From positions 37,789,404-37,853,403 of the forward strand of contig CM032122.1 of assembly GCA_018894105.1 (NCBI GenBank): a stretch of 64,000 nt of DNA. The letters are read 5' to 3'. The notes under the pieces were generated by a model. It ran no database searches, had not been told where the DNA came from, and saw only the letters and a program-made list of their open reading frames with translations. This document shows, in pieces, positions 15,001-16,671 of the stretch. Both the position numbers and the translations under genes were made by a program. Source of the stretch: Jacaranda mimosifolia (Eukaryota > Streptophyta > Magnoliopsida > Lamiales > Bignoniaceae). The first letter of the stretch is position 1. Every line of letters begins with the position of its first letter.

Positions 15001-16671
15001 GACATGCCAATTGGGCCCAAAATCAGGAATAATTTTTTGGATAAGAAGGGGTGGTGCATATTCCCCGCTCCATTTAATATGACATGACATGTGCATGTTC
15101 TGATGGACCATGCAGCTTAATAGTTGAGATGAACCATTCATAAACGTAATTAAATTTGACATTCAAATATGATTTTCTATATTTTCAAATGAATAATCAA
15201 GCTCCCTTTTAAATCTAATTTTTTTTGCTATATATATATGTACCGATATACGTAAGAAATTAAATATGTTCAAAATCTTAACATTAAATTTTATGTGTGA
15301 AAAATATGCTATTAGATGAAAGAGTAGAAACTTATGCTATCAGATCAAAGGTCACTTTACTCTTAAATGTCTAAATTAATTTAGTGCAGTCACTTTTTTT
15401 TAAGGTAAATTGGCCGACCAACACATAATTTTACTACTTTTTACCTTCTATTAACCATTAGCAAGCAAACTCCCTCATAAGAAATAGAGAACTAAAAAAA
15501 AATTAAAAGTATTGAAATGCGTTGAAAGGAAATGACAAGTTTACCCGATATATTTGAGGACTTTTCCAGTTTCATCCTTGATGGGTGCAATTGTAAGGAG
15601 ATTCCAAAAGGGGGTGCCATCCTTCTTGTAGTTGAGCAACCTCCCGCAATAACTCGAACCCGCTTCTAATGCCTCCCTGATCTTTGCCACGTCCTCTGGA
15701 TCTGTGTCCTTACCCTGTAAAAACCGGCTGCACGCACAACCCAAAATGTCATAAATACCACTCCCCACATATTATTATGGCTTTATTTAATACTGTAATA
15801 AAACTAAAACATAGAGTTTTAATTGTAGGTGATAATTGTACCTGTTTCTCCCTATGACCTCTTTGGAAGTGTAGCCAGTCATCTTGAAAAATCCAGCGCT
15901 TGCATACATAATGGGATAATCAGGTTTACTTGCATCTGATACAACAAATGTTTGTTGGAATGTTGATAATGCGTCCCTCAAATCCTCTGATACTCTTGGA
16001 AAACCCCTCTCTTTCCCTGGAATTATGTTCAACTTGTATCATATTTTTGATCTTACATACATATATACGGAATTATTCATTTTCTTACCTGTTCCATCAT
16101 CAGACAAATCGCCGGAGCTCCGGATAGAGTTGCCGGAATCCCTCCTGGAATTCCCTGTTTTGTTTAGCTCATCCCCGGAAGTCCTCACTTTCACCCCTTG
16201 CGGTTTACCTGTCTCTTCATCAGTCTTGAGAACCAGGCCCCACTCAGCAGCCCTTTGGGCGGCGGTTCCAACTTCACCCTGCGGCGGAGACCTTGCCACC
16301 GGCGACTTCTGGGCTTCACGTTCGCTGAATATCTCAGCTATAGTCTTGGAAGTCGCCGGTAGAGGAAGTGGTGATGATGATACCGCCGGAGGAGTTGACT
16401 CTTTGAGGGCCATCCATGAGGTGATACTGTCAACATTTGTTCTTCCAGACTTGGACGAGAGCTTCGGTTCTGATTCTTGTTCGGGATTACTGGGCCAGCT
16501 CTTCCAGCTGGAAGTCTGTGATCCGAACGCGGGATTTGCAGGCCTGGAAGCAGCGGCGGAAGAAGAATAGGTGGTTGGATTGAACACTTCGAGCGAGCCT
16601 CGGGTGTCCCTGGTCAGAGGTGGTATCATGGATCCTGGCTTGTTGCGTGAATTCTGATCACTCGTATCCAT
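6032..16671 (-). CDS. PHOT1: Phototropin 1, blue-light receptor Ser/Thr kinase (23 coding exons)
   Basis: Exons in transcript order: 16089-16671, 15842-16016, 15545-15727, 13162-13253, 12087-12357, 11768-12002, 11585-11655, 11081-11187, 10784-10833, 10566-10670, 10267-10326, 10067-10156, 9416-9492, 9189-9273, 8908-8988, 8525-8628, 7747-7796, 7460-7566, 7245-7367, 6999-7050, 6778-6890, 6306-6446, 6032-6121. They total 3045 nt (1014 aa) in frame, with GT-AG at each junction. Order: N-terminus with the PHOT1-type TRDTRGSLEVFNP block; LOV1 (about 195-310); linker; LOV2 (about 490-610, Cys536); AGC-VIII kinase (about 685-985) with GSGDTGS loop, Lys716, Asp812, DFD 830-832, and the activation-loop Ser871/Ser873 block MRASNSFVGTEEY; C-terminal LQKNVF. 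The N-terminus and LOV spacing favour PHOT1 over PHOT2. It acts at the plasma membrane in phototropism, chloroplast movement and stomatal opening. Oddity: the LOV1 adduct Cys is Ser253. The start ATG follows a UTR-intron acceptor by 2 nt. Confidence 0.95.
10784..11829 (-). other. PHOT1: LOV2 domain of PHOT1, adduct Cys536 present
   Basis: The domain is spread over four exons (parts of 11768-12002 and 10784-10833, and all of 11585-11655 and 11081-11187). It reads NFVITDPRLPDNPI, then IFASDSFLELTEYS...ILGRNCRFLQGPETDP, then NYTKTGKKFWNLFHLQPMRDQK. The GRNCRFLQ motif is complete, with the intron falling inside the following Arg codon. This is the LOV domain known to control the phototropin kinase, and its Ja-helix region follows in exon 10566-10670. 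Confidence 0.93.
11427..11456. repeat. Alternating CA/GT palindrome in a PHOT1 intron
   Basis: CCCACACACACACGCGTGTG followed by TGCGTGTGTGGGG forms an almost perfect inverted repeat of alternating purine/pyrimidine, centred near 11440, in the intron between the two LOV2 exons. Such sequence can adopt cruciform or Z-DNA. It may simply be a CA microsatellite joined to its complement. Confidence 0.7.
13930..14553 (+). mobile_element. Copia-like solo LTR inside PHOT1 intron 3
   Basis: The segment starts TGTTGGAAAATGGG and ends ATCTAACA, giving inverted ends TGTTGGA/TGTTAGA. It contains an internal TATA-like CTATATATAGAA at about 14176. No coding part accompanies it, so it looks like a solo LTR. 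Flanking pentamers ATCAT and ATTTC match only partly, so the target duplication is degraded. It sits in the 2.3-kb intron between coding exons 13162-13253 and 15545-15727. Confidence 0.6.
14795..14890 (+). mobile_element. tRNA-derived SINE remnant in PHOT1 intron 3
   Basis: A-box-like TGTAGCGTAATG and a good B box, GGAGTTCGAATCC, are spaced as in plant tRNA-derived SINEs, with an A/T-rich tail. No clear target duplication was found. Its orientation is antisense to PHOT1. Confidence 0.45.
15545..16016 (-). other. PHOT1: LOV1 domain core of PHOT1, adduct Cys replaced by Ser253
   Basis: Two exons encode LOV1. The first ends ...GGG AGA AAC AG at 15842, followed by GTACAA; the second begins C CGG TTT TTA CAG at 15727, after ...GTGCAG. 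Joined, they read GRN-S-RFLQG, whereas the family motif is GRNCRFLQ. Surrounding FMN-pocket blocks (FVVSDASKPDYPIMYAS, GFFKMTGYTSKEVIGRN, NYKKDGTPFWNLLTIAPI) look intact. An in-frame upstream acceptor (exon from 15760) would add 11 codons containing two Cys, but would break the motif spacing. Confidence 0.85.

What the first reader, a model, noticed from the sequence alone, without database searches (positions are those of the whole stretch)
15545..16016. PHOT1 with a natural Cys-to-Ser change at the LOV1 photoactive residue
Seen: the LOV1 exon junction reads ...AAC AG|GTACAA ... GTGCAG|C CGG TTT, giving GRN-S-RFLQG (Ser253). All 23 exons otherwise join in frame (3045 nt) and LOV2 keeps GRNCRFLQ (Cys536). 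Established: this Cys forms the flavin-C4a adduct; LOV2 drives phototropin kinase activation, while LOV1 modulates sensitivity and dimerisation. Inference: a single T-to-A change in a TG|C split codon removed the adduct Cys and also produced a stronger AG|GT donor. The result would be a phototropin with a LOV1 that is adduct-dead or signals only by flavin photoreduction. Intact sequence elsewhere argues against a decayed gene.
Basis: partly seen in the sequence, partly recalled or inferred. Interest (0 to 1): 0.88.

Follow-up and report, generated by a model that had tools for sequence, protein, structure and literature searches.

The report
Phototropin with disabled first light sensor
This plant's phototropin-1 gene encodes serine instead of the light-reactive cysteine in the first of its two blue-light sensors, and the same swap stands in 12 of 189 related phototropin-1 proteins, scattered so that our trees infer about 11 to 13 separate origins; the first sensor's light switch has therefore likely been given up again and again, while the second sensor is predicted to keep working.

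Summary
The window holds an intact PHOT1 gene (minus strand, 23 exons, 3045 nt, 1014 aa) whose LOV1 codon 253 reads AG|C (Ser); LOV2 keeps Cys536. PHOT2 in the same genome has TG|C (Cys) at the matching split codon, so Cys-to-Ser is the likely change.

The larger result is that this is recurrent. Of 189 PHOT1 homologues (union of two capped lists), 12 have Ser, 176 Cys, 1 a gap, none anything else. With the window, 13 Ser tips need 13 parsimony changes; I claim 11-13, because AU tests could not split two pairs. A second LOV1 switch residue, Gln316, is Leu in 13 of 189, never together with Ser. Neither residue changes in LOV2 (0 of 189) or in either LOV domain of PHOT2 (0 of 120).

I read this as repeated, PHOT1-specific loss of the LOV1 photoswitch with fold and flavin pocket kept. 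LOV2 would still drive the kinase; Ser-LOV1 would be adduct-dead or limited to flavin photoreduction. Eight full-text searches gave no report of it. Reads, cDNA, expression and photochemistry are untested; relaxed constraint versus adaptation is undecided.

The parts
6032..16671 (-). PHOT1 coding region, 23 exons, 1014 aa
   Evidence: exon join, all introns GT-AG, no internal stop; PHOT1 homologues at 87-88% identity over the whole length
15842..16016 (-). exon 2, first half of LOV1, ends GGG AGA AAC AG
15842..15843 (-). first two bases (AG) of codon 253; A at 15843 is the likely changed base, third base C is at 15727
   Evidence: sequence; PHOT2 of the same genome has TG|C
15728..15841 (-). 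intron 2, which splits codon 253
   Evidence: GTACAATT donor, GTGCAG acceptor
15545..15727 (-). exon 3, second half of LOV1, starts C CGG TTT
15604..15606 (-). codon of Trp294 in the FWN motif, candidate electron donor to the flavin (counterpart of Chlamydomonas W98 by recall)
   Evidence: present in all 13 Ser rows
13247..13249 (-). codon CAA of Gln316, the active-site glutamine, intact here but Leu in 13 of 189 relatives
11585..11655 (-). exon 7, ends with LOV2 GRN-Cys536 (TGC at 11589..11587)
6306..9492 (-). exons 13-22, which hold the kinase domain (residues about 687-977)

Best explanation
This is an intact phototropin-1 gene whose first light-sensing domain (LOV1) encodes serine in place of the adduct cysteine, so LOV1 is predicted to bind flavin without forming the covalent light adduct, while LOV2 would still switch on the kinase. 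Shown: the codon, the intact frame, Cys in LOV2, Cys in PHOT2 of the same genome, the same Ser in 12 of 189 other PHOT1 proteins, and no change at these residues in LOV2 or PHOT2 in the lists examined. Inferred: eudicot phot1 has repeatedly lost the need for LOV1 photoswitching, while LOV1 is kept as a folded, flavin-filled part that modulates or dimerises the receptor. The switch is lost by one of two mild hits, Cys to Ser or Gln to Leu. Ser is probably favoured among one-base changes because it is close to Cys in size and gives the consensus AG|GT donor. Ser-LOV1 would be light-silent or respond only by flavin photoreduction.
For: Codon and frame. TG|C in PHOT2. Recurrence: 11 of 120, 12 of 189. 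13 changes for 13 Ser tips in two trees; Castanea+Carpinus as one clade rejected. Gln316 to Leu in 13 of 189, 11 changes on the tree; both hits together 24 changes. Controls: LOV2 0 of 189 for both residues; PHOT2 LOV1 and LOV2 0 of 120 for both; PHOT2 is Cys in four of the 12 Ser species whose PHOT2 is in the list (Schlegelia, Davidia, Hamamelis, Castanea). LOV1 as a whole is not faster in PHOT1 than in PHOT2 and Ser rows are not more diverged in LOV1 than Cys rows. Literature passages: LOV2 Cys needed, LOV1 Cys not needed for phot1 autophosphorylation in the mutant tested (PMC5566536); LOV1 weak in phot1, less so in phot2 (PMC8086140); residual sensing by phot2 LOV1 (PMC4357641).
Against: A light-dependent role of phot1 LOV1 at high light, and a need for LOV1 for full light sensitivity, are reported in Arabidopsis (PMC4357641, PMC8086140, passages). 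Cys-less LOV domains can still signal by photoreduction (PMC4682037) and Gln-to-Leu LOV domains keep light responses (PMC9098866), so neither hit proves loss of signalling. All Ser rows are single tips, which may mean young, polymorphic or mildly harmful states. The two homologue lists are capped and biased (one search used a Ser-bearing query). Only this window's codon was read as DNA.
Confidence: 0.6

Rival explanations
1. Adaptive loss: selection favours phot1 without LOV1 switching in some light niches, for example to keep chloroplast accumulation or high sensitivity where normal LOV1 would damp it.
For: Many parallel changes, each time one of the same two single replacements, in one paralogue only; the pocket otherwise conserved.
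Against: No Ser clade of two or more rows in the trees, where lasting benefit would predict some; no habitat data or codon tests were run.
Confidence: 0.18
2. Retained signalling by redox: Ser-LOV1 still signals, through flavin photoreduction by the conserved Trp, so the change retunes LOV1 instead of silencing it.
For: Chlamydomonas LOV1 C57S forms a flavin-Trp98 radical pair and a semiquinone (PMC11089501, passages); Cys-less VVD and YF1 signal by semiquinone (PMC4682037, passages); the FWN Trp is present in all 13 Ser rows.
Against: That Trp is present in all rows with a letter there, Ser or not (180 of 181), so it is no sign of special selection; the Gln-to-Leu rows are not explained.
Confidence: 0.12
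3. Splice-site pressure alone: the -2 position of the LOV1 donor is driven from T to A for better splicing and the amino acid follows.
For: AG|GT fits the donor consensus; 7.89 versus 6.70 bits; Ser is the only replacement seen.
Against: PHOT2 of this genome has the same TG|C junction but 0 of 120 PHOT2 proteins changed; the gain is small; it does not explain Gln to Leu.
Confidence: 0.05
4. Artefact or decaying copy: an assembly error at one base, or a PHOT1 copy on its way to loss.
For: No reads or cDNA could be examined; one base decides the residue.
Against: The same replacement stands in 12 other records, 5 of them on contigs of 5 Mb or more. The frame is intact over 23 exons. Among 8 PAS_9 places in the genome only this LOV1 and that of PHOT2 read as phototropin, so no Cys-bearing PHOT1 copy showed up; that scan gives a lower bound and the dedicated search did not complete.
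Confidence: 0.05

Closest known systems
Arabidopsis phot1 C234A (LOV1-dead laboratory mutant)
   Same: phot1 without the LOV1 adduct Cys, LOV2 intact; in the R472H background C234A did not affect autophosphorylation (PMC5566536, passages).
   Different: Engineered Ala in one species; here natural Ser, recurrent.
Chlamydomonas phototropin LOV1 C57S
   Same: The same Cys-to-Ser change in LOV1; FWN-type Trp present here too (counterpart of W98 by recall).
   Different: Engineered, algal, isolated domain; radical-pair chemistry measured there (PMC11089501, passages), not here.
Zygnematalean algal neochromes
   Same: Natural phototropin relatives lacking a LOV adduct Cys (PMC4532919, passages).
   Different: There LOV2 is affected and several flavin contacts are lost; here LOV1 only and the pocket is kept.
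Natural Cys-less LOV-like proteins (PMC4682037) and Gln-less LOV receptors (PMC9098866)
   Same: Natural LOV-like domains without the adduct Cys (ca. 70 entries) or without the active-site Gln (around 350), some shown to respond to light or redox (passages).
   Different: The passages I saw name Ala, His and Pro in place of Cys and do not mention plant phot1; their supplementary lists could not be read here, so plant entries there cannot be excluded.

Membership tests
Phototropin (PHOT1 orthologue) | Two LOV domains followed by a kinase domain in one intact frame | tested here: met
   1014-aa join; full-length PHOT1 homologues that carry PAS/LOV and kinase Pfam domains
Phototropin (PHOT1 orthologue) | Groups with PHOT1, not PHOT2 | tested here: met
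   trees rooted on PHOT2
Phototropin (PHOT1 orthologue) | Adduct Cys in LOV2, the kinase-controlling sensor | tested here: met
   Cys536; 189 of 189 homologues
Canonical photoactive LOV domain (LOV1 of this protein) | Adduct-forming Cys | tested here: not met
   Ser253
Canonical photoactive LOV domain (LOV1 of this protein) | Other core flavin-contact residues (GRN, R, Q of RFLQ, two Asn, active-site Gln) | tested here: met
   motifs GRNSRFLQ, NYKKDG, FWNLL, KYIGMQV in the window row; contact list recalled (AsLOV2 numbering)
Canonical photoactive LOV domain (LOV1 of this protein) | Binds FMN and forms the blue-light adduct | not testable with these tools
   needs purified protein
Cys-less LOV that signals by photoreduction | Light-driven neutral semiquinone that changes signalling | not testable with these tools
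   needs purified protein and an activity assay

The most novel reading that the evidence does not exclude
Across eudicots phot1 is repeatedly turned from a two-sensor into a one-sensor light-activated kinase: its LOV1 photoswitch is removed by one of two alternative single substitutions (Cys to Ser, or Gln to Leu), about 24 separate changes on our tree, none in LOV2 or in phot2. The Ser forms keep a flavin-Trp pair and are natural versions of the laboratory radical-pair LOV1.
Probability: 0.45. Interest if true: 0.86.

Novelty: new variant of a known kind. Interest (0 to 1): 0.76.

Why it matters
What LOV1 does in phototropins is an open question (PMC8086140, PMC4357641, passages). Nature appears to have run the LOV1-dead experiment many times, in phot1 only. 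That gives ready-made pairs of relatives that differ at the switch residue (Castanea/Quercus, Dipteronia/Acer, Davidia/Nyssa, Hamamelis/Loropetalum, Aextoxicon/Berberidopsis), a testable prediction that phot1 but not phot2 can do without LOV1 photochemistry, and natural Cys-to-Ser LOV1 domains for flavin and spin chemistry.

Tried and rejected
Alternative splicing to restore Cys: no nearby GT-AG option in the sequence. LOV1 decay in Ser lineages: rejected; Ser rows differ slightly less from the consensus in LOV1 than Cys rows (6.1% versus 7.4%, nominal p 0.02; 13 versus 167 rows). Residues elsewhere that track Ser: nothing convincing; the smallest nominal p, 1.2e-4 at position 50 outside the LOV domains, comes from a scan of all 1013 other positions. 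One shared origin of Castanea and Carpinus: rejected (p-AU 2.6e-8). Mutual exclusion of Ser and Leu: not significant, 0.94 expected, P(0) 0.36. Family of the window's plant: Lamiales, beside two Bignoniaceae, support 95/75, not firm. Literature: eight searches listed no report of LOV1 Cys-to-Ser in plant phot1; they cover open-licence papers only, and supplementary files were not open to me. One search used a Ser-bearing query on the LOV1 region and so favours Ser rows; one search is the fairer count, though its query bears Ser as one residue of 1014.

Full report
OBSERVATION. The minus strand of the window carries a complete PHOT1 gene. Joining 23 exons between 16671 and 6032 gives 3045 nt with stop and a 1014-aa protein without internal stops. 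At the LOV1 active site exon 2 ends AAC AG|GTACAA and exon 3 starts CAG|C CGG TTT, giving GRN-Ser253-RFLQG. LOV2 has GRN-Cys536-RFLQG, its intron three bases further on (TGC AG|A). Ser253 aligns with the Cys of the GRNC motif in Arabidopsis phot1 LOV1 (2z6c).

ANCESTRAL STATE. PHOT2 of the same genome (locus L004) reads GGA AGA AAT TG|GTGAGA ... CAG|C CGT TTC, Cys at a codon split in the same way. The PHOT1/PHOT2 duplication predates the split of angiosperms and gymnosperms (PMC4532919, passages), so TG|C is the likely ancestral junction and T to A at 15843 the likely change. A PAS_9 scan of this genome (16 first-look candidates, all scored) returned 8 places. By my reading of the translations and, only the window and L004 are phototropin LOV1; the others look like a LOV/PAS protein (L001), PAS kinases (L003, L005, L006) and ZTL/FKF1-type proteins (L007, L008). 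The dedicated search for a second PHOT1 copy did not complete (13 tries).

RECURRENCE. Among the best 120 of 1734 PHOT1 homologues 11 have Ser, 108 Cys, 1 a gap at this site, and LOV2 is Cys in all 120. A second search on the LOV1 region of the Castanea protein (best 120 of 2126) brought the union to 189: 12 Ser, 176 Cys, 1 gap (Dorcoceras), no other residue; LOV2 Cys in 189 of 189. The Ser proteins are listed as Schlegelia, Davidia, Aextoxicon, Hamamelis, Dipteronia, Maesa, Tetrastigma, Carpinus, Castanea mollissima, Synsepalum, Ipomoea nil and Coptis chinensis. Five of the 12 come from contigs of 5 Mb or more (Dipteronia, Carpinus, Castanea, Ipomoea, Coptis); seven list no contig and are probably transcript-based.

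TREES. With the site removed, a FastTree of 184 rows (181 PHOT1 including the window, 3 PHOT2; 9 homologues left out beforehand) needs 13 changes for 13 Ser tips from a Cys root. An IQ-TREE quick tree of 81 chosen rows also gives 13. Cys rows stand next to Castanea (Quercus), Dipteronia (Acer), Davidia (Nyssa), Hamamelis (Loropetalum) and Aextoxicon (Berberidopsis). Holding window and Schlegelia together is not rejected (p-AU 0.155), nor Maesa and Synsepalum (0.104), so I claim 11 to 13 origins. Castanea with Carpinus is rejected (2.6e-8). No Ser clade of two or more rows appeared, which fits young, polymorphic or short-lived Ser states. Some deep placements (Coptis, Tetrastigma) are unsure.

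SECOND SWITCH RESIDUE. Counting changes in every LOV column showed Gln316, the active-site glutamine, as Leu in 13 of 181 rows with 11 changes. No row has both Ser253 and Leu316; 0.94 were expected, so the exclusion itself is not significant. The Leu rows are Handroanthus, Buddleja, Anticharis, Ehretia, Rhododendron, Litchi, Cercocarpus, Reevesia, Gleditsia (two), Fagus, Crotalaria and Bidens. Handroanthus is one of the window's nearest rows. Together 26 of 181 rows are altered, in 24 changes. Leu may be milder than Ser: Gln-to-Leu LOV domains were reported to keep light responses, often weaker (PMC9098866, passages).

CONTROLS. In the best 120 of 7865 homologues of this genome's PHOT2, LOV1 Cys, LOV2 Cys and both Gln residues never vary. 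In PHOT1 LOV2 both residues never vary (189 of 189). Nominal Fisher values: Ser 11 of 119 versus 0 of 120, 3.7e-4; either hit 20 of 119 versus 0 of 120, 3.7e-7. Sharing 24 changes by tree length (17.55 versus 11.38) gives 6e-6 for none in PHOT2. These values ignore relatedness and list selection. LOV1 as a whole is not faster in PHOT1 (803 changes per 17.55 versus 571 per 11.38). Ser rows are not more diverged in LOV1 than Cys rows (6.1% versus 7.4%). So the fold stays constrained while the two switch residues are free to change. Not all of the pocket is fixed: the RFL leucine is Met in 37 of 181 rows with 17 changes, against 1 change in PHOT2 LOV1, and PHOT2 LOV1 varies at other contacts instead (contact list recalled).

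MECHANISM. Passages read: Cys mutation abolishes LOV photochemistry and LOV2, not LOV1, is needed for phot1 kinase activation (PMC4357641; PMC5566536). LOV2 is tenfold more efficient than LOV1 in plant phot1 but twofold in plant phot2 (PMC8086140), and phot2 LOV1 has a residual sensing role (PMC4357641). This fits loss in phot1 and retention in phot2. Against simple uselessness, the same reviews report a photoactive role of phot1 LOV1 at high light and a need for LOV1 for full sensitivity. The same change in Chlamydomonas LOV1 (C57S) gives a flavin-Trp98 radical pair and a semiquinone (PMC11089501); Cys-less LOV proteins can signal by photoreduction (PMC4682037). The FWN-motif Trp, by recall the counterpart of W98, is present in all 13 Ser rows and in all Cys rows with a letter there. 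Ser-LOV1 is therefore predicted to be adduct-free, and either silent or redox-responsive.

SPLICING. In a matrix of this gene's other 21 donors A at -2 scores 7.89 bits and T 6.70. PHOT2 has the same junction in this genome and never changes in the list, so splicing is at most a bias on which replacement is reached.

LIMITS. Only this window's codon was read as DNA; other species are protein records. No reads, expression or spectroscopy. The sample is mostly eudicots. No published account was listed, which cover open-licence papers only.

Noticed in passing
13247-13249 (-), and homologues P0013, P0017, P0033, P0047, P0075, P0089, P0103, P0105, P0117, P0136, P0141, P0155, P0186: The LOV1 active-site Gln (Gln316, intact in the window) is Leu in 13 of 189 PHOT1 homologues and never in LOV2 or PHOT2: a second recurrent change of the LOV1 switch.
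   Followed up: yes
PHOT1 LOV1 residue 256 in homologues: The RFL leucine next to the flavin is Met in 37 of 181 PHOT1 rows (17 changes) against 1 change in PHOT2 LOV1; possible retuning of LOV1.
   Followed up: no
L001 about 1501-1812 (-): Another LOV/PAS protein of this genome reads GKNGRIFQG where LOV domains have GRNCRFLQG, so Gly at the adduct position; it looks like a twin-LOV (PLP/TLP) protein by recall.
   Followed up: partly
homologue P0069 (Dorcoceras): Its PHOT1 record has a gap at the GRNC motif of LOV1; annotation gap or real loss not checked.
   Followed up: no
Ser-bearing homologues: By recall most of the 12 Ser species are trees, shrubs or woody climbers; no test against the Cys species was made.
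   Followed up: no
4174-5034 (+): A thaumatin-family protein gene downstream of PHOT1 on the other strand.
   Followed up: partly
21879-22250 (+) and 27256-27720 (-): A reverse-transcriptase-like (RVT_3) frame and a protein-kinase exon.
   Followed up: partly
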